Source: Dryococelus australis
Taxonomy: Eukaryota; Arthropoda; Insecta; Phasmatodea; Phasmatidae
DNA length: 64,000 bases
Reading direction: 5' to 3'
Assembly: GCA_029891345.1 (NCBI GenBank)
Contig: CM056994.1
Span: forward strand, 221,809,491-221,873,490
Made by a program: the position numbers and the translations under genes. Numbering within the stretch: position 1 is the first letter of the stretch; every line of letters starts with the position of its first letter. The notes below the pieces were generated by a model. The model did not search any database, had not been told where the DNA came from, and saw only the letters and a list, made by a program, of their open reading frames with translations. Below are positions 2,986-64,000 of the stretch, one piece after another.

Positions 2986-3496
2986 AAAATATGGGTTGTA
3001 ATTTCACTACTCTTAATTTGTACTCCGCAATATGAAAAACGAAAAAGAAAAACCTTAAATGAAATTTGTTATAAAATGTTGCAGTAAGATTTTGAAATGA
3101 GCACACCGCACAGCACCTTAAGATTAACCTGCCCTGTGCTGCGCGACACATGATGTCAGTATGGAATTCTGTCTCTCACCCCTCTTCTCCCTCACCCACT
3201 CTCTGCTACAGTCGCCTCCTACTTATCTCCCATGGTGACTGGAAACAGCATTGGTTCACTGTTGCAAGCATAGAAACTATGCTAACCAATAACAGAATAC
3301 ATTACTCAACCCCACCTTTGCCCCTTTAACCCTTAGTGTAGGGATTGCTTCTTCATTTATTGTGCATGCAGTGTTTGGTTGCTGGCTATGCCTTTTGATT
3401 TTGTGTGTTTGATTTTGGCTTCTGTTTGGATTTTGAGTACATATTGTATTTTGAATTGACTGTATTCATTGTTCATGTCCTGCTACTGCAGGTGAT
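2986..3496. other. No gene seen
   Basis: Mixed sequence with a C/T-rich run near 3170-3230. No domain, RNA gene or element end is recognised. Confidence 0.5.
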
Positions 3497-3674
3497 AGGG
3501 ATTTTTACTCAGAACCGCCACACACTAGTAGAGTATGCACACACGTTCTGGAGAAGACCACTTTTTCTGTGCACCATGGTGTTCTAGGGATTTTTACTCA
3601 GAACCACCACACACTAGTAGAGTATGCGCACACGTTCTGGAGAAAGCCACTTTTTCTGTGCACCATGGTGTTCT
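3497..3674. repeat. Tandem duplication, two 89-base copies
   Basis: 3497-3585 and 3586-3674 are adjacent copies differing at only a few positions. Each runs from AGGGATTTTTACTCAGAACC to CACCATGGTGTTCT. The high identity implies a recent duplication or local gene conversion. Short open frames here are a by-product of the repeat. Confidence 0.95.
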
Positions 3675-21915: not shown

Positions 21916-22028
21916 AGTGCAGCCAGATCGTGGGTAAAAAATGCCCCCACTTTGTGCCGTTTTCAATGTGCTTAGGCGAGACTGTCCCACAGAGTGGGGG
22001 TACGTTTTACCCACGATCTGGCTGCACT
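21916..22028. repeat. Inverted repeat inside the Helitron, perfect 24-base arms
   Basis: 21,916-21,939 and 22,005-22,028 are exact reverse complements (left arm opens AGTGCAGCCAGATCG). Inner bases also pair partly through CCCCCACTTT and AGAGTGGGGG. The perfect match in a decayed element suggests a recent insertion or a structure kept by gene conversion. Confidence 0.95.
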
Positions 22029-22174
22029 GGCAGGTACCCGTGTGTCGCAGTCACGTTGTTGGTGCCGTACACAGCTCACAGCATGTTTTATTTTCCGAAT
22101 CTGTCCATCCTCATTTCATTTATTGTATTAACTTAATACTAATGTCTATCTGCTCATACATTCGCATGCAATGT

Positions 22175-22318
22175 ATGGTGGTACGAAAAGAGTGTTTTTC
22201 CCATGGCCAACTATATGTTGGTTTATCGCGAGTTGGAAGTCCCGAGAAACAGTACATTTTGCTACCAAACAATAACAGGATGCCAAACATTGTCTACAGA
22301 GAATGTCTTAGCCAATAA
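22175..22318 (+). pseudogene. Helitron Pif1-like helicase, C-terminal scrap
   Basis: The frame reads CFSHGQLYVGLSRVGSPEKQ and then PNIVYRECL before a stop. This is the last helicase motif and tail of Helitron Rep/helicase proteins (family pattern F-x-H-G-Q-L-Y-V-A-L-S-R-V and N-V-V-Y-x-E-V-L). Rep nuclease and the rest of the helicase are absent between the element's ends. It lies about 250 bases before the 3' terminus, the place where autonomous Helitrons end their gene. Confidence 0.85.
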
Positions 22319-49990: not shown

Positions 49991-50440
49991 TAAAATTAAA
50001 GTGTGAGTGACTTGCTGTTTGTTTCAGTTTAAAGTGTAATTGACTGGCTGTTTGTTTCAGTTTAAATTAGTGTTTAATTGCGTTGCTGTTTGAATTCAAG
50101 TTTAAATTAATGTGTAATTCAGTTGCTGTTTAAATTTACATTTAATTGTGTATCTATTTGGTTTAAATTTTAAATTAGTGTTTAATTGAGTAGCTATTTG
50201 ATTCAAGTTTAAATTATTTTATTGTGAAGCAGATTGATTAAAGTTTAAATTAATGTTTAATTGAGTTGCTGTTTGATTTAATTTAAAATTAATGTTTAAT
50301 TTAGTAACTATCTGTTTCGGTTGGAAATTAATGTTTAATTGAGTTGCTGATTTATTTAATTTACAGGTGCGAATGAGACAGTGTAGCTGTTTGTTTCAGT
50401 AAAAAAAAATCATGTTTAATTGTCTTGGTGTTTGTTTAAA
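49991..50440. repeat. Minisatellite, unit about 42-50 bases
   Basis: About nine degenerate units repeat the theme TTTAATTGAGTTGCTGTTTG followed by a TTCAGTTTAAATTAATG-like spacer. Unit length and sequence drift along the array, so it is old. It lies between the Merlin relic and the nine-unit array at 50,950. Confidence 0.85.
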
Positions 50441-52074: not shown

Positions 52075-52319
52075 GACAATTTTCATTCAAAATATATATA
52101 CTTAGATATTTACTGGCATACCTACAAATAAAACATTGGCTTCATTTAGTTTTGTTTAGGGTTTTTCCCCATGATAAATTAAAATTTCACAAATTTCATT
52201 CTCAGTATCCCTCATAATTGCAGTTTCACTGTTCAAATCCTCAGTATTTAGGAAGTTTTCGATGTCTTCCTTGTCGTTATTCATTGCCTTTTTTATATTG
52301 TCCGAACATACAAAGCTGT
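51921..52319. other. AT-rich spacer
   Basis: Contains a TA run followed by a T run of about 30 bases near 52,028-52,068. No gene is seen. This is about where the virus-like coding region begins to the right. Confidence 0.5.
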
Positions 52320-52853
52320 CTATTTACTTTTACTAGATACAACTGCTTTTAATACTGTAATTTTATTACTTCCCATTAATAAAACATTTGCTCCATTTTC
52401 TAGCAGATAATCCACCATTTCCACAATGCTGTCTTGGGCTGTGAAATGCAGTAACAAATACTTTTCTAATAAAACCGGTTCACCCAAACTATTTTCAATT
52501 AGGTAATGCACAATGTTTTCATGATCTACATTAGATGCTTTCACCAACAATTTCCAATCTTTGTGAATCCCTTTCACTACCACGTCTGTTGTTTGCACCA
52601 AATACACAAGTACGGGCCAATTTTCAAAATAATAATTGTCATACTCCAATACAGTTATACCCTCTGAATCTTTAGGCAAAACGTTGACACCTTTTATAAG
52701 GAATTTTACAATTTCCAAATTCACTGGCTCTCATTGTGTCTTTGCTGGATCAAATTGGTGTCTTTGCTGGCTCTCATGGTGCCTCTGCTGGCTCTCATGG
52801 TGTCTTCACTCTGTAGTTTGCAGAGAGCGAGTGTGATCACTTGGTTCAATCAT
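52320..52853 (-). pseudogene. Ankyrin-repeat gene relic, probably viral
   Basis: The minus strand encodes about four ankyrin-like repeats. Repeat cores include NLEIVKFLIKG, DHENIVHYLIEN and SIVEMVDYLLENGANV, the usual helix-turn-helix pattern of a protein-binding repeat. An ATG at 52,853 sits just after a TATAAAA-type sequence. A 21-base tandem repeat (about 52,723-52,806) lies between it and the repeats. Ankyrin proteins are common in large insect DNA viruses, where they often target host signalling. Its membership of the virus fossil is inferred from position. It is broken. Confidence 0.6.
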
Positions 52854-52906
52854 CTTGTTTTTATACACGCACTGGGCAAGATTTTTTTATAGGGCGAGAA
52901 GGAATG

Positions 52907-52958
<52 letters not shown>

Positions 52959-53390
52959 GGAATGTAAGTTTCTTTATATGGTATTGTGAGTTTTACCGAC
53001 CCTGATAAATAGAATAAAAAAAAAATTTTATTTTACTTTTCCATACACGATTAACTTCAGATGCAAAAAAAATGACTATGGTTGATTAGCACGATCTTGT
53101 CAATTAAATTAGCATTGTGAAAACAAAATGAAACTTAGATTTATGCGGAATGTTAAAATATAATGCCGCTTATTTTGTTCCTGCAACCATTACGCAAGTT
53201 TCATTGCAAACTTTTTTATACTTTTTAACTTTGAAAACATTCTCATATAAACGACAGATGGACTCATGAGAGAGCCATTTGACTCACACTCTCGACCTCA
53301 GAAGTTGGGTAATTGAAATTAGTTTTTGTTTATCAAAGTTATCAAATGCGCAGCGACCACTGATAAAACATATTTCATTTTAACATTAGC
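52854..53390. other. Spacer with a 43-base T run
   Basis: T run at 52,912-52,954. The remainder is AT-rich with no gene recognised. It separates the ankyrin relic from the membrane-protein gene of the virus fossil. Confidence 0.6.
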
Positions 53391-53393
53391 TTA

Positions 53394-54120
53394 TTACTTT
53401 TCCAATTTCAGAATAGTTTTGGCATCAGTGACGAAACTGATTGAAAACACTTTGAGGTTTCTAGATGCCTCGGGAGATACAATCACGATTCGTTTGTTAT
53501 AGGACCCATAAACTAATTCGATTCCATTTTCAAAAGTACATTCAATGTAAAATTGTTGGTAAATTAGTGGTTGGTCGAGTAAATCTTTGTAATTTATTAC
53601 ATTGACATCCGACGAACCCTTGACTTGGCCGTCTTCATTATCGTTTAGATGAACTATGAATATAGTTTGTGAATGTTCGTCCAAAAGGTCGGAAATTGTA
53701 TTAAATTGCTCCGAAAATTAACCGCTTTAAATTCTTAAATATTAACCGAGTAAATACACCTCTGGTAATATTCATAGTGTATCTCTTTACCGTTTTAAAA
53801 CAAATCATGCTCACCTCTACCGGCTTGATGATTGATGACCATATAGATGATATTTTTTCGTCTGTTAAACTAGATTCGTGGGTATTTGTAAAATCATCGG
53901 TTTCGGTAGTAAATTCATTTTCCAGAGATGTGGTCGTGGTGGAAAGTAACTTTTTTTCTTTCCACCCCACCACCCTCCTCGACCATTTTTGTTATAGAGC
54001 TGTCAAAATTGTGGTGTTTTTTCCAATTGTATATACCGAGTGGAATTGCAATAATTAAACTAACTATGAGTAGACCCAATCCCACGTAGAGTTGTTTATT
54101 TCATTTATTCATAGTTCTTA
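53394..54120 (-). pseudogene. Virus-fossil membrane protein with N-terminal anchor, unknown
   Basis: Near the 5' side (about 54,020-54,100) the minus strand reads a hydrophobic stretch with VGLGLLIVSLIIAIPLG followed by basic residues, an N-terminal membrane anchor. A Thr/Glu-rich region and a soluble domain ending near 53,394 follow, with FIVHLNDNEDGQ and FYIECTFENG. A TATATAG lies about 10 bases before the presumed start. An N-terminal anchor is shared by several per-os infectivity factors (PIF-1, -2, -3), but no diagnostic motif was recognised. It is broken. Confidence 0.5.
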
Positions 54121-54956
54121 TCTATATATTGGCAAACAGTAGTAAAAAAACTCAAAATTACACAGAGCGATTGTCGGTTGTATAGCTATCCATCGGGTGC
54201 CGTGGTGACCGAGCTCAGATCGCATATGATTGTGGGAAAACCATAGAATACTTGTTTGCACCGATGTTTGAATGGCGATTTCATTGTATTTTACCAACAG
54301 GTAAGTGAGGGATACAGTCATTATTTCTAAAATTTCAGAATAACTAAAAGTATCAATAAGAGGTGCCATAGATTTATTTAATTTTTGGAGATCGTTTGTC
54401 TTTGGAACACCCTCCTATAATGTCTCTACATCAACCAATACGTCTTTGCAGTTATTTGAAAAGAAATGATTTTTTTTTTTTTTTTTTTTTTCATGTGATT
54501 GAATATCTTTTCATACTTGTGTCGTTCAATTTGAAATGATAGGGAATTATCTTTGTATAGTAATTATGTCAACTCTTTAATATTTTCATTTTCTGCCTGT
54601 TGTTCGTCTCTCAAAAATATTATATAATTTTCGCGAGTGACGTGGACCCAAACAATTTTGTTGAAATGTATACTGCTTAAGATATAGAAAATTTAAACAA
54701 TGGGTTAATTGCAAAATTTTAAATTATTTTAGAAGCGAATTTAACCTCAATACAGAATCGTAAAAATATTTGTTATTTATGATGACTGTCAGATGTAAAA
54801 ATTCCAAATACAGTGGCGGATTTAGTTTTATAAATTCAACCGATTCCATAAATTCAGAATGTGTCTAGTTTTTTATTTAATTTTCTCCACGCTTTTAACT
54901 TTAACAACTCTCTAATCGCAAAGATAAAATCACAAGGTATTATTGTTTTTTCCATT
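54118..54956 (-). pseudogene. Virus-fossil gene of unknown function
   Basis: The minus strand shows coding-like sequence from an ATG at 54,956 (MEKTIIPCDFIFAIREL) to about 54,118, including FLRDEQQAENENIKEL and EILEIMTVSLTYLL. A T run of about 20 bases lies inside (near 54,472-54,491). The start is 18 bases past the end of the small membrane-protein gene upstream, typical of tight viral packing. No family is recognised. It is broken at a few points. Confidence 0.45.
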
Positions 54957-54973
54957 GTATAATATTTATTTAC

Positions 54974-55156
54974 TTAATTACCGGTAGCTGCAGCTCCTGA
55001 ATTAGTAGCACCTCCGAAAGATGTACTCGTACCAAATTGTGTATTAACCGAGCCTTTTATTTTACTTTTAAATTTCCATAAAACAAACCCTAAAATTCCA
55101 TTTAATAAAATAGATCCTATAATGATAAACGCGTACATTTGTTGTTTTTCCCCCAT
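54974..55156 (-). CDS. Small single-pass membrane protein of the virus fossil, open
   Basis: An ATG at 55,156 starts a 60-codon frame: MGEKQQM, a membrane segment (YAFIIIGSILLNGILGFVLW, residues 8-27), KFKSKIKG, then a Gly/Ala/Ser/Thr-rich tail. A TATATAAG lies 6 bases before the ATG. Short one-pass proteins with an N-terminal membrane segment are typical of envelope components of baculoviruses and nudiviruses (for example PIF-7 or ODV-E18 type), but sequence alone does not pick one. This is one of the few frames here that looks whole. Confidence 0.55.
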   Translation of the reverse strand: MGEKQQMYAFIIIGSILLNGILGFVLWKFKSKIKGSVNTQFGTSTSFGGATNSGAAATGN

Positions 55157-55299
55157 CGTCTTATATACAACTACAACATGTAAAAAAATATGTTGCACAT
55201 CAAGTTGGCAAAAGTAGTATAATAAAAAAGATAGACCAAAAATCGCAACATATTAGGAAATTATTATTTTTATCATTGATGTATTTACAATAGTTTCAA

Positions 55300-57000
55300 A
55301 AATGTATTTACACTTGAATAAATTTCAATTTGTTCTTGTTCTGTATAAGAATTTCGTCTAGCCTACATCCCATAAAATTTGCATAAATGTCATTATCAAT
55401 TGTTAATCCTGTACTGCTCTGAACTGTATTTCCATACGTAATTTGAAGCGGGAAACCATATAACAAGAGTTTATTGTTTTTAGTAGCTTCACGTACGTGT
55501 TGAATGGGAAAATTTATCTATCATATAGATATTCATCTTAAAGAAACATTTTGGTGTCCGAAAGAGGTTTTTTCCCCCTCGTCACACATGAGTATTTAGT
55601 CTCCAATGTGTCCCAAATAATATAAAACTTCACCGATGCATACTCCATGACCACGAAGTAAACTGCGGTAAGGAACACCAATTATTTGCGGCAAGTAGTT
55701 GGTTTTGAGGTTTTCATTCTTCTCTGCTATCAATGTTTTTTTATCGTTTGAAATTAAAATCGGAGTGAGCCGGGGACTATTCTTGAAAATACTCTGTCCA
55801 TCTCAGTCACGTCAAGCCAGCAGCTATATTCCTATAGAATTTTTTTTTTTTGAACGAGAACAGCAATCGACACACTTAAATTGAAATAGTGTGCTTCGAT
55901 GTTTGTAAAGATAAAGAAAAGAAATCCAGGAAACTTTACCAAGTTTTCCTGCACCCAGTTCATAATCTCTTTTTAGTTGAGTACCAAACATGTGTACGTC
56001 GAAATGACGTGTAAGCAGTTTCTTCCAGTTAGGAGCGGTATTTAAAGTTGTCAGAAATTCCTGGTATGTCAAATCCACGTTCCTAAACTGTGTGGTTACG
56101 AAAAAATTATCACCACATAGTTCGCGAATAAGCGATATGAGATTGGGTTTGTTTGTCTCAAACAGCTTTAACTGATACTGATTGTCACAAAATACAATCA
56201 ACAGTTTACTAAAAGTGTGCTTCGCCATTTGGGAAAAATCAACTATAAATTTTGCTAGACATGCGCTGATCATACTGTGTTCGTCAACAAACAAAACAAT
56301 GAGTGCATCAAAGGAAATTGAATAGTTGTAGTTACATTCCACAAAAAAACGAAGACGTGTTGTAACTGAGATCGCAAAACTTGCCCAATTCTTGTACCAC
56401 TGTAGATATTTTGTCAAGGTCAATCCCTGGGAAGAGCTGCATGAATTTCAAATAATCGTAACTGAATTTAGTCAACCGAATTAGGAGACTTGATAAAGTC
56501 AAGCCATTTGCTAGTTTCATCCGTCTACAAATATTTCGCAATAGAATGTGTCATGGGGTCGTGTAAAAAACTGTATTTTTTTCTTCGATAAAAATATGCA
56601 ATAATGTAGATTTCCCACTGCCGGCAGGACCTTTAAACGTTATGTTTTTAAGTGTAGCCAACTCACCATCATTATTCTCGTCGAGCCATGTAAATAAAAT
56701 GGTTTTGACAAGTTCTTGTTTCATTGAAAGAGTTAACTTTGCCGACGTAAAATTTGTTGTTGTTTCCGCAGCTTTCGGTTCGGAATTAGATGAATATAGA
56801 AGGGTAATTAACTTGTCCTTGAGATTTTCAGGCGGAATTTGTTGCGCCTATAAACACATTCCATTACTACTCAATACATCTCTGAAACATAAACTCCAGT
56901 CTCATTTAGCTGGAAGACCATGTTTCACTCGTAACTTATACTTGACGATTTTTCCAAGGGTATTGATCTGTGAAATGGGTATTTTTTATGTTTGCTGAGG
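55300..57000 (-). pseudogene. Pif1-type (SF1) DNA helicase relic of the virus fossil
   Basis: Helicases of this family unwind DNA during viral replication; nudiviruses and some baculoviruses carry one as helicase 2. On the minus strand, Walker A GPAGSGKST lies at 56,605-56,631. Walker B-like FVDEHSM is at about 56,271-56,291, with a TTQFRNVDLTYQEF block near 56,050-56,100. A C-terminal FPLQITYGNTVQSSTGLTID block near 55,390-55,460 corresponds to the last helicase motif. Order and spacing fit a full-length gene. It is broken at several points. Confidence 0.75.
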
Positions 57001-57248
57001 AGATTTTCGAGGAACAGCCAAACAAATAAAAGGACCATTGTGATATTTTTAACATTTCACCATGGATGTTGCCGGTGTAATAAACAAAGTTACTTACAAA
57101 CCAAACCTTTTATAGTAGATATTTTGTCCATAAAAAAAAACCCACCAATATTTTTTTTAAGTTCCTTATAGTGTAAATAAAAAGGTTATGTGTTGCGAAA
57201 AAAAAAAGTAATGATTTTTTTTTGGTATATAAGTCTCTAAATTAAAAT
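57001..57248. promoter_or_regulatory. Divergent promoter region of the virus fossil
   Basis: The gap separates minus-strand genes (helicase leftward) from plus-strand genes (rightward). It holds two TTATAG words (57,110-57,115 followed by TAG; 57,166-57,171 followed by TGT), close to the TTATAGTAT late-promoter word described for nudiviruses. TATATAAG is at 57,226-57,233, 16 bases before an ATG. AT-rich DNA produces such words by chance, so the call is tentative. Confidence 0.4.
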
Positions 57249-57670
57249 ATGGGAAGTTCGCAGAGTTTTCAAAACAATAACAATTTAGATGGTGGCAATT
57301 AAAAACAAAGGGCCTTTTACGATTTTAGAAGGTCTAACAAATTAATATTCAAAACATTGTTTCCTTACTAACACGATAAAATTAACCGATTATAGAAACT
57401 TTATTTACAGTTTACTAAATTTACCATCACTGAATGACTGTACTTTTTTCCCTAAACTTTGAGGGAAAACTTTCGGATCATTTATATCAAGAAGAGGCGG
57501 GAAAAAGGGATATGAGATTAAATGTATTAAACATAAAATGTTAATTATATCACAATGTTTACATAATTTGGAAACAAATTATGCTACTTTTAAACGTTTG
57601 CAAATTGGCCTAATGGCAAACTCTGTATTACACCACATTATTTGTGCATGAAACCAAAATTGTACTGAAG
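57249..57670 (+). pseudogene. Virus-fossil gene fragment starting MGSSQS, unknown
   Basis: An ATG at 57,249 opens MGSSQSFQNNN, an N-myristoylation-type start (Gly-2, Ser-6). Coding-like plus-strand sequence continues to about 57,670 without a recognised domain. It is broken. If real, the product would be membrane-targeted through a lipid anchor. Confidence 0.35.
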
Positions 57671-57689
57671 CATTTAATTTTTATATAAT

Positions 57690-58740
57690 GTGGATATAGT
57701 TTCTTTCGAGAATATTATCGATTTCGCAGAAATCGAATCAGAAAATGTACAAATATTTCTAAATCTACACGAATTCAAATCACTAGTTTCTCAACGCCGT
57801 TTAAGATTTAATAATTCCGATATATTGGATAGAGACAATAATTACATAATGGTTGCTGAATCAAATTCGTTAAAAGACCTTGCCAAAATAATTAACAGTT
57901 TTGACAAAGTACTTGATACTAGTAAAACTGGATTTGTGATACTTGCGAAAAACTTACAACTTTTTGGGACTATATATTCAACCTGGTTGATGCAGGATGT
58001 TGGCTCTAAACCGGGTAAATGTGTAAAACAAGATTTCAAAGGATATATAGTTTTCGTGATGAACTACATGGACATAAATAATCCAATGATTAAATTTAAA
58101 AATGTGGTCACTTTACAATTATTGATGTCCAGCATCAGCCAAATCGATAGTGATTTTACCTACGGGTTGGATACTCAAACTACTGCGGCGGTCAAGTCAT
58201 ATATCAAAGGTAAAATTCGAACACTAAATATCATAAAATTTACTAACGAAGCGATCGTGGTGAAAACGTTTGAATACACGGATAAAGAGATTCTCTTACA
58301 ACCCAATACTGAATTGGAATAATTGTCAATTTCCATTCTCGATGAAGACAATGACTGGTTGGCTGCACAAATCATTAATAATTTACAACACCTATCAAAC
58401 AAGCACTTGTTTTTCAAATGCACGTCTCAGATTTATAAATCCGATACTAATTTGATAAACCTTCTCGTCGAGTATTTCGAGCCACAAAATAATTTCGTTT
58501 TCATAGTGCCTAATAATTTAAAGAATAGTGTTGCTGTGACATCGAGTAACTATTTGGTTAAAGTAGTGATCGATAGTTCAACATCGCTAGCGTTCAGCGC
58601 AGCTCAGATTCACATTCTCGATAAGTTATAAGAAGAACACGTAATTGTTTATGTTCCATCCGGTAACAATTCGTGTATTTATCCCTCTTGTAGTTATACT
58701 ATAGGTTCTTCTTTGAAATTAAAAAATTACAATTGAATAT
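57690..58740 (+). pseudogene. Virus-fossil plus-strand gene(s), unknown family, part 1
   Basis: An open stretch of about 210 codons begins near 57,690, without an in-frame ATG at its start. Coding-like sequence then continues to about 58,740. Visible words include TGFVILAKNLQLFGTIYSTW and FVFIVPNNLKNSVAV, short hydrophobic strands followed by K/N-N-L. No known domain, signal or membrane segment is recognised. Together with the next entries it may be one long gene or a row of related genes. It is broken. Confidence 0.45.
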
Positions 58741-59015
58741 CAAATACAAAAACTATTATGCTGAATGATGAAATTGAATATACTGAGTTGACTACTAATA
58801 AAACTAGTATTTTGCACTCATTCGATCTGCTTCAGAGCTTTTAATAGGAGAGGCAATGGAATTAATCAACATTACCTTTTTGTTTCAAATCTAAAAAAAT
58901 TCAGTATCTCTGATCGACAATCCCAGAATCAAAAAGTACATTTTGAATGCGCAATATCAGCACGAAATGTTTGTTCTTTCAAACACATTATTTTATGATA
59001 TACCATCCATAAAAT

Positions 59016-59720
59016 ATGTCTGTTACTAAGCGACAACACAATGATCAAAGTTTCCAGTTTTCCTACTCGTCATCTCCCTCCTTATATTTTTCCTTCACTC
59101 CTTGCACTGATACATTCGTGATTGGTTTTTCCAAATCAATTTTAAACAAGGCAAAAATGTTGGATTTGGATGTAAGTACGGCTAATGTTATCTTTTACTT
59201 CGAACCAAATAGCTACAAGCAAAATATTCAAGAGGGAGTGTTTGAATTCTCGGGGGAAGCTGTTTATTCACCAGTAGATTTGAATAGGCACATAGTAAAC
59301 AACTACGAATTAAAGTTGATGGATCGTAGGAAAGTTCATGTAATAGCTATCAATAAAATGCGAAATTCGTTAAACTCGAATGATGCAGTAATACATTACA
59401 TTGCTACACTTAAATGTTCTCCAATTTTCATCTTTTTTCGTAATGTTTCCGAACAATTTGTCCGCATTTTGGTGACGAATTTGGCCACATTTAAAAGCCA
59501 ACGGACCAAATACGCGCCTATTTTTGTCATGACGGCTAGGCTAAATGATAATTTTCAGGAAAACCAACTAAGTACACAACTTACTGGTATTTCGTATAAA
59601 ATGTGCACCAAATCCAATAGTTCCATGTATCAATACATTTGTATAGGATATCTAAACACATCCCTACTCTATGACAGAAACAACAATGAAGCAATTGTCC
59701 AAAAAGATCAGGTCGAATAA
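59016..59720 (+). CDS. 234-codon open frame of the virus fossil, unknown
   Basis: An ATG at 59,016 opens MSVTKRQHNDQSFQFSYSSS. The frame stays open to 59,720, the longest in the window. It is mixed soluble sequence, with SPIFIFFRNVSEQFVRILV (a strand then an N-x-x-E helix) and MCTKSNSSMYQYICIGYLN near the C-terminus. The latter resembles a YLCTSSSSKI block at about 60,690. No family is recognised. The start is uncertain, as upstream sequence is also coding-like. The long open frame implies limited decay of this part. Confidence 0.5.
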   Translation: MSVTKRQHNDQSFQFSYSSSPSLYFSFTPCTDTFVIGFSKSILNKAKMLDLDVSTANVIFYFEPNSYKQNIQEGVFEFSGEAVYSPVDLNRHIVNNYELKLMDRRKVHVIAINKMRNSLNSNDAVIHYIATLKCSPIFIFFRNVSEQFVRILVTNLATFKSQRTKYAPIFVMTARLNDNFQENQLSTQLTGISYKMCTKSNSSMYQYICIGYLNTSLLYDRNNNEAIVQKDQVE

Positions 59721-59788
59721 AACACTACGATTTATCATTAGTGAAAACCCTAAAAAATATGCGAAAACAACGATGATGATTTTATGGT

Positions 59789-61518
59789 CATGGCATCTTT
59801 ATACAAATCTTTGGTGAATGAACAATTTCCATCAAATGCCGAATATATGTATAGTGCGATTGATGGCCAGCATTATATCATGAACCTCTCATTGTTTGTT
59901 TGTATTCCAGGGATTCCTGCCATTTACGAGGAGAAATAGCCATTGACAATCACGAGCACTATTTCCATAGAATAGTAGTATTCAAAGCAATTTTATCTGA
60001 TTTGTATTATTTGAGCAAATACTTGGAAGCCATGCCTGATAAAAAACTCACACTAGTGGTGAAGATTATCTATTCATTCACAGGAGATAGCGGTATCGTT
60101 TTCAAAATAATGTCTAGCCAATTTATTTAACGAAAGTAATGGTTTCCAAGTCGTTGAAAATATTCAGAGGAACCTCGTCATCATTTCAAATGCTTTCCCT
60201 GAAGTTCTAAGAGATTGTTTGCAATTCGAGGATGGCACAAATACAAAAAATTTTACTCCACAAAACTCTAACACGTCCGAAGAAAGTAAATTGGTTTCAG
60301 ATACCAAAAACATGAAATGTACTGCTGAATCGTATGTTGATAATTACAATTTATCGAAGAGAATTGCGAGTTGTTCAAGTTTAATACCTCAAATACCCAT
60401 AACAATAACCATGGGAATGTGGCTTAAGTATATTGTAGTGAGCAACAAAGTTCGAACCAGTTTAATTTACAGTTGAATACGGATTTGGACAATGAGATAC
60501 TAACGATTATGATTAACTTTATTCATGATATTTCGATAGCTTCCTTCAATACCATATTGCGATTTATGAAAAGTTATCCTACTGCTTTCTATAACAAGGT
60601 TGTAATTGCCAGCATTACCAATATGAGGACATATAAATTAAACACATATTATGACAAAATCCATCATTATGATAAAATGTTGAAGTATCTATGCACATCT
60701 AGTTCGAGTAAAATAATTAAAAATATTGAGAGAGGAAATAGTTCAGATAGCATTTACATCAATGGTTTTCATGGTATAAATGATAATATTATGGTGTATG
60801 TGGATTCGACAAGGAACCCCGTACTACCTACTGGTGAAAACGTTGTTTAGCATTTGCATATGAAATTTTGTGGTACAGATAGGCTCGCATGTTTAAAAGG
60901 ATATGCTATTTTAACCACGCAATATATAATCAAATATCCTTCGAATTTATATGCAACTGGTAATCTCGACACATCCAACCAAGAGTTGATCAGGGCGGTG
61001 GTTTTTGTTACAATTCCTTCAATCTCTTTCCTAATTTTAATATCGTAGATGATACACAATCTATTATGGTTATACATTGGAAGTCTGAGGAATATGAATT
61101 ACCTTTGGGAATTCTTTGGGTAAATATTTGTGCAAAATATAAGAATTCTACAGAGAGTGTGTTTTCCATATCGAAATACAACAATAAAAATATTCGCCCG
61201 GTAGTATATTTTAATTTAAAAGAAACAAATCCAATACGAATAATAGAAGAGGAAACTACAATAGAAAAACCTAAAAAAAACATATATTTTAACTATTTAG
61301 TTCATTCGAGTAAAAAGGGTATTTTAGCACCCCGTATAGAGTACGTAGATAATGAAAATAAATTTTACTACAAAATATTTATCCATCAACCTGGGAGAAA
61401 AAATCTTTATTACCACCCACTAAACATCAAGTTATATGTGTATGAAATCGAAAAAGGTTTAAAAGAGATTTTACATAATACAAATAACACATTTCATTTT
61501 AAAATCATTTTTGGGTAA
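59789..61518 (+). pseudogene. Virus-fossil plus-strand gene(s), unknown family, part 2
   Basis: Coding-like plus-strand sequence runs nearly without spacer from about 59,789 to a stop at 61,518. Words seen include YYLSKYLEAMPDKKLTLVVK, LRFMKSYPTAFYNKVVIAS, AYNLYATGNLD-like sequence near 60,950, and ELPLGILWVNICAKY near 61,095-61,140. The last 150 codons are Lys/Asn/Ile-rich and soluble. Similar strand-plus-helix rhythm links it to 57,690-59,720. The function is unknown. It is broken at several points. Confidence 0.4.
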
Positions 61519-61599
61519 AAGAAAACTGTAATTAGGACCTTTTTGATGAGGTGGTAAGTTGTGTTGTGCTTGAAGTCACACAATAACAGTAAGACACCT

Positions 61600-61894
61600 G
61601 CCGAGATATTAGCAGCTGCTGAAAAAAGTTATACATATTTTTAACAATTTGATTGAAAATGCAAATATCTCGAAAACCAAAACTACTACTGCTACTTTAA
61701 ACACTAATGATGAACGTAAAGAGAAGCTGGAATTAGGAAAAGAAAATTTACAAAACAACACCTTCGTTTGGCAAAATTGCTCAAAATATATTATTACGCC
61801 GACCCTCATGACTATTGTATTTATGCAAATACCGCAGATAACAATTATAAAAATCATAATCATATCGATATTTTTAGCATATTGGATTCATTAA
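61600..61894 (+). pseudogene. Virus-fossil gene with C-terminal membrane segment, unknown
   Basis: The plus strand reads a Thr/Asn/Lys-rich region (ISKTKTTTATLNTNDERKEK), then a hydrophobic end (IIKIIIISIFLAYWIH) before TAA at 61,892-61,894. This is a C-terminal membrane anchor. The start is not settled. It resembles small tail-anchored virion proteins in layout only. Confidence 0.35.
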
Positions 61895-61930
61895 TATAAG
61901 TCATTATTGGAAAAATTATTATAAAAAAGA

Positions 61931-61981
61931 ATATATATATATCTCTCTCTCTCTCACTCTCTCTCTCTCTCTCTCTCTCTC
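61931..61981. repeat. AT/CT microsatellite
   Basis: (AT)n passes into (CT)n with one CA step, about 50 bases, inside the virus fossil. It probably expanded after integration. Confidence 0.9.
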
Positions 61982-62039
61982 GTGGCATTCAGAGTGTTGT
62001 AGCAAACTTGTAGTTGGTATAAGTAAAGAAACATAAAAA

Positions 62040-62200
62040 GTGCTCCAGTTGGCTGCGAAAATAAACGTCAGCCTTATCGCAGAGTCGACCGGAATGACTT
62101 ATAACAAAGTCGGAAATAAGGATGAAGATGAATCAATTGCCCTTTTCATCGATAGGCTGACGAAAAATGTTTTATCATGCAAAGAAGATTGATATTTCAT
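62040..62200 (+). pseudogene. Short virus-fossil coding remnant, unknown
   Basis: The plus strand reads AKINVSLIAESTGMTYNKVG, then DESIALFIDRLTKNVLSC before a stop near 62,190. No family is recognised. It lies between the microsatellite and the tail-to-tail PIF-0 relic. Confidence 0.3.
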
Positions 62201-62349
62201 TACGTTCATCAACGCAGGTTTGAAAAAAAAGATAAAATAAAAAGGTATATGTAAACACAGTTTGCAAGATTTTCAAATTAACCAAGGATCGACAGTTTCA
62301 TCACAGAAAGTACTCGCCCAATGAACTCTCGATCATATTTATTACGGTG

Positions 62350-64000
62350 TTCATTTTAAACGTGTAGAGTGTAAAGTCCAAAACTTGATCTTGTTTTTTG
62401 TCCACTACAAGTTTTCAATTGATTTGACAACATCGTATCATCATCATACCCGCCCATATTGTTCCAATCGATACGAGATACATTTGAGTTGACTTTGAGG
62501 GCCAGTAGGTATTGTAAACGAAATTGCAATAATGTTTTAAAATCATCTTTTACTACTTTAGTATAATGAATACCCGTAATAGGTGGGTTAATTATGGCAT
62601 CTTTTCTTAAAATGCCGCCAATTTACCGGTGCTGGCATCATTATCGATAGAGAATGGTTGGATGGAAACGTGAATAGATAAATCTATAACTCCTTCGTTC
62701 ACATTCTTCCACATCACGAACATGATCAGTGATATATTCCATTATTCAAAAATCCCAAATATTTTGATTTAATTCAAATTCCAGCTTGGATATATCATCT
62801 ACACAGTCTTGACCTTGTAGGTTTTGTAAGTTGGCTGGATCGAATATGATCAAAAACACATTAGCGACTGCCATCATGATCAATACATCATCAAGTATGG
62901 GCACCCAAGAAAGAGTAACTGTAGCAAATGCTCTAACGGCGAATCGCACCTTTTTAAAAGAAGTCGTTAGCACAGCTCTCGTAACAAATTCTATAGTCAA
63001 GGCTCTAAATAAATTAGTTCCCAACTGACGATTCAAGATCTTTGCACCTGTTGCGATCATTGTTGGTCCGGTATGTTTGAGTAGGGTCTTGAGAACCATA
63101 TTCAAACCGACCTCACCGAATAATTGCAGTAGGAATCCTCGGATGCAAGAGATTATAATATCGGTAATTATGTCGGAAATATCTTCTGAATTGTAAAATC
63201 ATCGGGATATTTGGTCGGAAAACCACCCATTAAACCGATCATTTGATATTTGTCCATTTGACGTTTACCATTATCTGTATATTTTAAGTGGCATGGCACC
63301 GAATCGGCTTGCAGTCCAATTCGGACCCGAGTATCTTTATCGGGAACTATGGATTCGACATCGCGGGTCAGTATCAAAGGCTCCACAAGCCTACACCCTC
63401 CCCCATACTATGTGATCCAAAATAAATATCTTGGTGTTTTTTCTGTGCTGCACACGTAGCTGAGTTTAGTGTCTGGATTTATGCCAAACGCCTCGTGATT
63501 GACGAAGTTAATCCATTCTACGACATAATCGGGCATTTGTCCCGTTGGTCGTACTTGCGGGCTCTTTACTTCGTCCTGATCGATTCCATAAGCCAATTCC
63601 ACGAAACTGTATTCTATTATCTTGTACAAGTAATTTCCGATGAAAAAGCCTATAATTTTACTATCTAAATGGTCTGTGCATTCGTCACCCGCCAGAGACA
63701 TAAAGTTATCGCAATAATACGAGTTTAGACGAAAGTGTATTGTTTCATCACCCATCTCTGTCGCATACGGTGAAGAATCGACATAGAAACCAGTTTCTAT
63801 CGTGTTTGTGTGCGGAATAATCGTGCCTTCTTTTATGCGCCAATAATTGTCTATTCCCAACTGGTAAGCTTCATGAAGAACCAACATACATGCATCGCAG
63901 CGGTCGCTCCAATAGTTATTTGATCCGTGATATTTCGATTCGGGATCTTTGGTTGGAAAACATGATCCTTGGCACACAATCACATCTGAATTTCCACTTT
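62350..64000 (-). pseudogene. p74: PIF-0 / P74 per-os infectivity factor relic, runs off the right edge
   Basis: P74 (PIF-0) sits in the envelope of occlusion-derived baculovirus and related virions and is needed for gut entry. The minus strand shows a cysteine-bearing block (VCQGSCFPTKDPESK, near 63,940-63,983). A core with FRLNSYYCDNFMSL...DECTDH and IGFFIGNYLYKIIEYSF (63,590-63,750) aligns in position with the P74 N-A-Y-C-x-R-F...G-C and I-G-F-V-L-G-E-S segments. A hydrophobic C-terminal region has LIMMAVANVFLIIFDP (near 62,840-62,890), like P74's L-x-L-x-D-P-F-G membrane stretch. An ALKVNSNVSRIDW tail lies near 62,470. It is broken at a few points. Confidence 0.8.

What the first reader, a model, noticed from the sequence alone, without database searches (positions are those of the whole stretch)
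52300..64000. Endogenous fossil of a nudivirus-like large DNA virus
Seen: dense AT-rich coding-like DNA, with PIF-0 and a Pif1-type helicase as recognisable anchors, in a window otherwise made of transposons. Known: PIF-0 is a core gene of Naldaviricetes, and a Pif1-type helicase 2 is typical of nudiviruses. Inference: an ancestor of this arthropod was infected by an unsampled nudivirus-like virus whose DNA entered the germ line. The fossil continues beyond the right edge, so its gene content is only partly visible.
Basis: partly seen in the sequence, partly recalled or inferred. Interest (0 to 1): 0.85.

Follow-up and report, generated by a model that had tools for sequence, protein, structure and literature searches.

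The report
Decayed insect filamentous-virus fossil in genome
A broken piece of a large insect DNA virus, closest here to the filamentous viruses known mainly from parasitoid wasps rather than to nudiviruses, seems to lie in an animal chromosome near transposons; it is a new example of a known kind of genomic virus fossil.

Summary
The viral fossil is real; nudivirus kinship is not supported. Four collinear minus-strand pieces (62304-63998) are per os infectivity factor 0 (PIF-0/P74), interrupted by stops and a frame change. An intact 722-aa relative (P0001, unnamed 3,495-nt public contig) matches them at 53-69% identity and passes both Pfam P74 models. The only named relative found is PIF-0 of Microctonus hyperodae filamentous virus (Filamentoviridae-like; 32% to P0001, E 1.9e-97). 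The second anchor (55311-56847, minus strand) is probably a broken SF1/Dda-Pif1-type helicase (one profile hit, E 1.7e-5, and ordered motifs; no Pfam PIF1 hit). The ORFs at 57678-61518 and 53394-55252 remain unassigned; an ankyrin ORF (52320-52730) may be host or viral. Broken genes, with transposon relics and snoRNA copies on the same contig, favour an old chromosomal insert, though no junction was seen. Family placement rests on one gene and three relatives from a capped search; no nudivirus, hytrosavirus or baculovirus PIF-0 was compared. The host is unidentified: the genome search did not complete. Naldavirus fossils with stops are already described in ants, and filamentovirus-derived ones in wasps, so this is a new member of a known kind.

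The parts
63408..63998 (-). PIF-0 piece 1, open at the right edge of the window (matches residues 101-297 of P0001)
   Evidence: Pfam Baculo_p74_N E 1.3e-3; blastp to P0001 69% E 1.5e-99, to MhFV PIF-0 39% E 2.7e-41, to P0003 31% E 9.3e-22
63171..63407 (-). PIF-0 piece 2 (matches residues 309-378 of P0001), after a stop
   Evidence: blastp to P0001 56% E 6.1e-24, to P0003 E 1.0e-6, to MhFV E 1.1e-5; no Pfam family
62746..63198 (-). PIF-0 piece 3 (residues 375-528 of P0001), in another frame from pieces 1-2
   Evidence: Pfam Baculo_p74 E 4e-3; blastp to P0001 52% E 4.0e-52, no meaningful match to MhFV (E 6.5) or P0003 (E 0.87)
62356..62622 (-). PIF-0 piece 4 (residues 574-662 of P0001); a further short tblastn stretch reaches 62304
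   Evidence: Pfam Baculo_p74 E 5.3e-3; blastp to P0001 58% E 6.4e-26, to MhFV E 1.6e-5, to P0003 E 0.003; tblastn 62414-62304, 51%, E 1.5e-4
56551..56847 (-). probable SF1 helicase piece with Walker A (P-loop)
   Evidence: PHROG 325 Dda-like helicase E 1.7e-5; motif at 56631; other P-loop families weakly, best nSTAND_NTPase5 E 0.0043 in Pfam and replication factor C large subunit E 5.5e-4 in NCBIfam, far below its cut-off
55824..56447 (-). probable SF1 helicase piece with DExSM (motif II); motif III- and IV-like stretches by eye only
   Evidence: motif at 56294; no Pfam or NCBIfam family, one unnamed PHROG at E 0.77
55311..55517 (-). possible C-terminal helicase piece (Pif1-like motif V stretch)
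   Evidence: motif at 55451 (pattern written after seeing the sequence); no Pfam family; one unnamed PHROG at E 0.013
57678..61518 (+). series of plus-strand ORFs (214, 102, 235, 88, 121, 140, 184 aa), perhaps one or two large broken viral genes; unassigned
   Evidence: ORFs; no Pfam match at its gathering score; viral-contig scans with two of them found no relative; model of the 235-aa ORF pLDDT 39.7, no fold match at E <= 0.001
53394..54100 (-). broken ORFs, one with a hydrophobic segment by eye; unassigned
   Evidence: ORFs; no Pfam match at its gathering score
54974..55252 (-). 92-aa ORF (with an inner ATG) and a hydrophobic segment by eye; unassigned
   Evidence: ORF; no Pfam or PHROG family
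52320..52730 (-). ankyrin-repeat ORF near the left end of the block; host or viral origin undecided
   Evidence: Pfam Ank E 1.8e-7, Ank_2 E 7.4e-7, both above their gathering scores

Best explanation
An ancestor of this animal was infected by a large nuclear double-stranded DNA virus of class Naldaviricetes, from a lineage whose nearest named relative found here is a filamentous virus (Filamentoviridae-like). A stretch of the viral genome became part of a germ-line chromosome and has decayed: PIF-0 (in living relatives, part of the machinery of oral infection) and a probable SF1/Pif1-type helicase are broken. Shown here: PIF-0 homology, the order and breakage of its pieces, a helicase-like P-loop piece, transposon relics and snoRNA copies on the same contig. 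Inferred: germ-line insertion (no junction seen), loss of function (no expression or selection data), and that the unassigned ORFs between the anchors belong to the same virus.
Against: One core gene only. The protein search scored a capped candidate set, and no nudivirus, hytrosavirus, baculovirus or Apis filamentous virus PIF-0 was compared. The signal for MhFV over P0003 comes from piece 1, piece 4 and the whole-length scores; piece 2 matches P0003 slightly better than MhFV, and piece 3 matches neither. Eight scans of viral contigs (five window pieces, P0001, alignment A1, one DNA pattern) returned no relative. No host-virus junction, read depth or second copy was seen; the genome search was unanswered in 9 of 9 tries. 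No helicase piece has a Pfam PIF1 hit.
Confidence: 0.78

Rival explanations
1. One reading: the fossil of a nudivirus or nudivirus-like virus.
For: Nudiviruses have PIF-0 (PMC10271883, part 1 of 5) and two helicase types (PMC12548425); endogenous nudiviruses are documented in several insects (PMC7916170, passages).
Against: The only named PIF-0 relative found is a filamentous virus; two helicase types are not exclusive to nudiviruses.
Confidence: 0.1
2. Only PIF-0 is viral with certainty; the P-loop gene at 55.3-56.8 kb is a relic of a Helitron or another transposon or host gene, so two unrelated pieces sit about 5.5 kb apart.
For: Transposon relics occur in the window, and the ORF at 21938-22315 holds what reads by eye like a Pif1/Helitron helicase tail (no Pfam hit).
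Against: No Helitron or PIF1 family among the matches of its pieces (the one helicase model listed is RNA_helicase at E 0.19); same strand as PIF-0.
Confidence: 0.2
3. The P-loop gene is viral but is an AAA+ ATPase rather than a Pif1-type helicase.
For: AAA+ and STAND ATPase families match the P-loop piece weakly, and an AAA+ ATPase is conserved in filamentoviruses, hytrosaviruses, AmFV, AmFLV and the ant viruses (PMC12548425).
Against: The best profile match of all is the Dda-like helicase (E 1.7e-5); DExSM and a motif V-like stretch follow downstream.
Confidence: 0.15
4. An exogenous virus contaminating the assembly, joined to host DNA by misassembly.
For: No junction reads could be examined; an intact relative exists on a short public contig.
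Against: PIF-0 is broken by stops and a frame change, not expected of an active virus.
Confidence: 0.04
5. A domesticated viral locus whose products are still used by the host, as in Leptopilina wasps.
For: Filamentovirus genes are domesticated in some wasps (PMC11750357, abstract and passages).
Against: PIF-0 is broken here, and no intact recognisable viral gene was found in the visible 11.7 kb.
Confidence: 0.04
6. A giant mobile element of viral origin with many copies, like the endogenous nimaviruses of crustaceans.
For: Such elements exist in crustacean genomes (PMC10871703, abstract and part 1 of 3 of Results).
Against: None of six telomere-repeat strings occurs in the window and no inverted repeat of 80 bases or more was found, though only one end of the element could be visible. 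Nearest named PIF-0 is not a nimavirus. Copy number could not be tested.
Confidence: 0.05

Closest known systems
Microctonus hyperodae filamentous virus (MhFV; LbFV-like, exogenous; PMC10403939, passages)
   Same: its PIF-0 is the best named match to the intact relative P0001 (32% over 97%, E 1.9e-97); fossil piece 1 matches it at 39%, E 2.7e-41
   Different: an intact, exogenous virus; at most 41% identity to a fossil piece, and 16% in piece 3; gene order and helicases of MhFV could not be compared
P0001, unnamed 722-aa PIF-0 on a 3,495-nt public contig
   Same: 69%, 53%, 53% and 60% identity to the four fossil pieces
   Different: intact open reading frame; source organism, and whether virus or chromosome, unknown
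Filamentovirus-derived elements of Cynipoidea and Platygaster wasps (PMC11750357, PMC10259472, passages)
   Same: endogenous elements from filamentous viruses, some with stops
   Different: described in parasitoid wasps, many of the genes judged domesticated; host here unknown and PIF-0 broken
LGDV-related endogenous elements in ants, including a region of about 100 kb in Camponotus floridanus (PMC12548425, section 12)
   Same: naldavirus fossil with premature stops and transposable elements
   Different: related to a separate ant and bee virus lineage; there 37 loci match 31 viral genes, 35 loci on the one scaffold, against one or two recognised genes here
Nudiviridae and endogenous nudiviruses
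   Same: carry PIF-0 and two helicase types
   Different: no nudivirus protein was among the hits; the relationship was not directly tested

Membership tests
Endogenous viral element | virus-derived coding sequence | tested here: met
   PIF-0 pieces
Endogenous viral element | host-type DNA on the same contig | tested here: met
   RT and copia-type gag pieces above Pfam's cut-offs, hAT-like piece below it; three snoRNA copies, all in 1-43 kb
Endogenous viral element | disabled reading frames | tested here: met
   3 and 4 stops in the two long stretches, which lie in different frames
Endogenous viral element | junction reads and host-like read depth | not testable with these tools
   no reads available
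Naldaviricetes | PIF-0/P74 | tested here: met
Naldaviricetes | pif-1, pif-2, pif-3, pif-5, DNA polymerase, p33 | tested here: inconclusive
   none among the 28 distinct ORF pieces of the block given to Pfam; only 11.7 kb of the element is visible
Lefavirales | lef-4, lef-8, lef-9 | tested here: inconclusive
   none among the same 28 pieces
Filamentoviridae | monophyly with LbFV-like viruses | tested here: inconclusive
   best named hit is MhFV, but no tree with other families could be made
Filamentoviridae | family-specific core genes | not tested
   no filamentovirus gene set at hand
Nudiviridae | PIF-0 closest to nudivirus PIF-0 | tested here: inconclusive
   no nudivirus among the 3 hits, but scoring was limited to 7,996 candidates
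Nudiviridae | second, Pif1-type helicase | tested here: inconclusive
   Dda-like profile hit E 1.7e-5 and ordered motifs, no PIF1 model hit; not exclusive to nudiviruses (PMC12548425)

The most novel reading that the evidence does not exclude
The fossil and its intact relative P0001 represent an undescribed lineage beside the known filamentous viruses that combines a filamentovirus-type PIF-0 with a Pif1-type second helicase, and it infected a host outside the parasitoid wasps from which these viruses are mainly known.
Probability: 0.25. Interest if true: 0.6.

Novelty: new member of a known kind. Interest (0 to 1): 0.4.

Why it matters
It adds a lineage, otherwise seen in these searches only on one unnamed public contig, to the sparse record of filamentous insect viruses, and moves the likely family from the nudivirus to the filamentovirus side. 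If the host proves not to be a parasitoid wasp, it would widen the known past host range of this family, and shared copies in related hosts would date it.

Tried and rejected
Viral-contig scans (8 of 8 used) with five window pieces, P0001, the alignment A1 and one degenerate pattern gave no relative. A protein search with piece 1 alone scored 15 candidates and found nothing, presumably because full-length relatives fall outside the length range. PDB sequence searches gave nothing meaningful (best E 0.14, a sensory rhodopsin transducer). Single-sequence structure models were poor (pLDDT 36.0 and 39.7) and their fold searches gave no match at E <= 0.001, so they are not used. Phage tblastn with P0001: no match. 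NCBIfam gave only matches far below its cut-offs. ODV-E18 was considered for the small ORF at 54974-55252 from recall and dropped (no profile hit). Three papers sought by id were not held: the filamentous virus family, LbFV genome and nudivirus remnants papers, known to me only by citation or recall.
Full report
What was checked. The finding claims PIF-0 and a Pif1-type helicase in 52300-64000 and infers a nudivirus-like fossil. I handled stop-to-stop pieces separately.

PIF-0 is there. Of 28 distinct ORF pieces of the block given to Pfam, three minus-strand pieces match the two P74 families in the expected order: 63408-63998 (P74_N, profile 163-241, E 1.3e-3), 62746-63198 (P74, profile 11-133, E 4e-3) and 62356-62622 (P74, profile 165-196, E 5.3e-3). 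Each is below Pfam's gathering score. A search of 5.77 billion proteins with piece 1 padded by X gave one hit among 79 candidates, P0001, 722 aa, 69% identical over the whole piece (E 6.3e-88). P0001 passes both P74 models (E 7.9e-16 and 9.4e-11). Piece by piece, blastp to P0001 gives E 1.5e-99, 6.1e-24, 4.0e-52 and 6.4e-26 for residues 101-297, 309-378, 375-528 and 574-662. The N-terminal 100 residues would lie beyond the right edge. The best score of the three PIF-0 proteins against 60 first-order-Markov windows plus the reversed window was 28.5 bits; P0001 scores 380 and 231 in the real window.

It is broken. The two long tblastn stretches hold 3 and 4 stops and lie in different frames (coordinates). 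This is expected of an old chromosomal copy and not of an active virus.

Which virus. Searching with P0001 returned three proteins at E <= 1e-3: itself, a protein of Microctonus hyperodae filamentous virus (E 1.9e-97, 32%) and an unnamed 736-aa protein, P0003, on a 25-kb NCBI contig (E 2.2e-67, 29%). In the piece-1 region identities are P0001/fossil 69%, P0001/MhFV 44%, MhFV/fossil 41%, P0001/P0003 36%, MhFV/P0003 33%, P0003/fossil 30%. Piece 4 also matches MhFV better than P0003 (E 1.6e-5 and 0.003), but piece 2 matches P0003 slightly better (E 1.0e-6 against 1.1e-5) and piece 3 matches neither; in the piece-3 region the three proteins are about equally far apart (20-23%). So the fossil and P0001 are clearly one group, and the case for MhFV as next nearest rests on the N-terminal half and the whole-length score. 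MhFV was placed with LbFV and DaFV by its authors (PMC10403939, passages); Filamentoviridae was ratified in 2025 as a family of Lefavirales preferentially associated with parasitoid Hymenoptera (PMC12451622, passages). The limit is plain: only the 7,996 candidates sharing most words were scored, and no PIF-0 of another family was compared.

The helicase. Piece 56551-56847 hits PHROG 325, Dda-like helicase, E 1.7e-5 (eight pieces given). Pfam gives weak general P-loop matches (best E 0.0043), and NCBIfam's best is a replication factor C model (E 5.5e-4, far below its cut-off), so an AAA+ ATPase is a live alternative. Walker A, DExSM and a Pif1-like motif V follow each other at 56631, 56294 and 55451 on the minus strand and occur in none of 60 shuffled windows; the motif III pattern used was not found in the real window and occurs 22 times in the shuffles. 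The motifs are recalled, and the motif V pattern was written after seeing the sequence. An SF1 Dda/Pif1-type helicase is likely; its viral origin is inferred from position and strand. Two helicase types are reported for nudiviruses, AmFV, AmFLV, the ant LGDVs and some baculoviruses (PMC12548425), so this does not point to nudiviruses alone; that passage does not list filamentoviruses.

The rest of the block. The plus-strand ORFs from 57678 to 61518 and the minus-strand ORFs from 53394 to 55252 that were scanned have no Pfam match at a curated cut-off; the PHROG and NCBIfam matches of the few given were weak. Ankyrin repeats at 52320-52730 pass Pfam's cut-off. The number of ORFs exceeds simulation, but so it does in three of the five other stretches tested; only ORF length sets the block apart, five ORFs exceeding all 100 simulations. 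The left boundary is not defined.

Novelty. A naldavirus fossil of about 100 kb with stops and transposons (Camponotus floridanus, PMC12548425, section 12) and filamentovirus-derived elements in wasps (PMC11750357, PMC10259472, passages) are in print. Six papers in the held library mention filamentovirus names; in their listing and the parts read I saw no filamentovirus-derived element outside Hymenoptera, but I read parts of only some of them, and most literature is not held. This is a new member of a known kind, with an unnamed lineage behind it.

Noticed in passing
[not shown]
   Followed up: partly
window 21938-22315 (+): ORF with a stretch that reads by eye like a Pif1/Helitron helicase tail; no Pfam hit.
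   Followed up: partly
window 49996-50363: Tandem array with units of about 33-39 bases (also fitted with 68) left of the viral block.
   Followed up: no
window 3496-3674: Two head-to-tail copies of an 89-base unit, 95-96% identical.
   Followed up: no
P0003 (736 aa, NCBI contig of 25,375 bases; not a window feature): Unnamed PIF-0, 29-31% identical to P0001, apparently a further naldavirus or endogenous element without a name.
   Followed up: no
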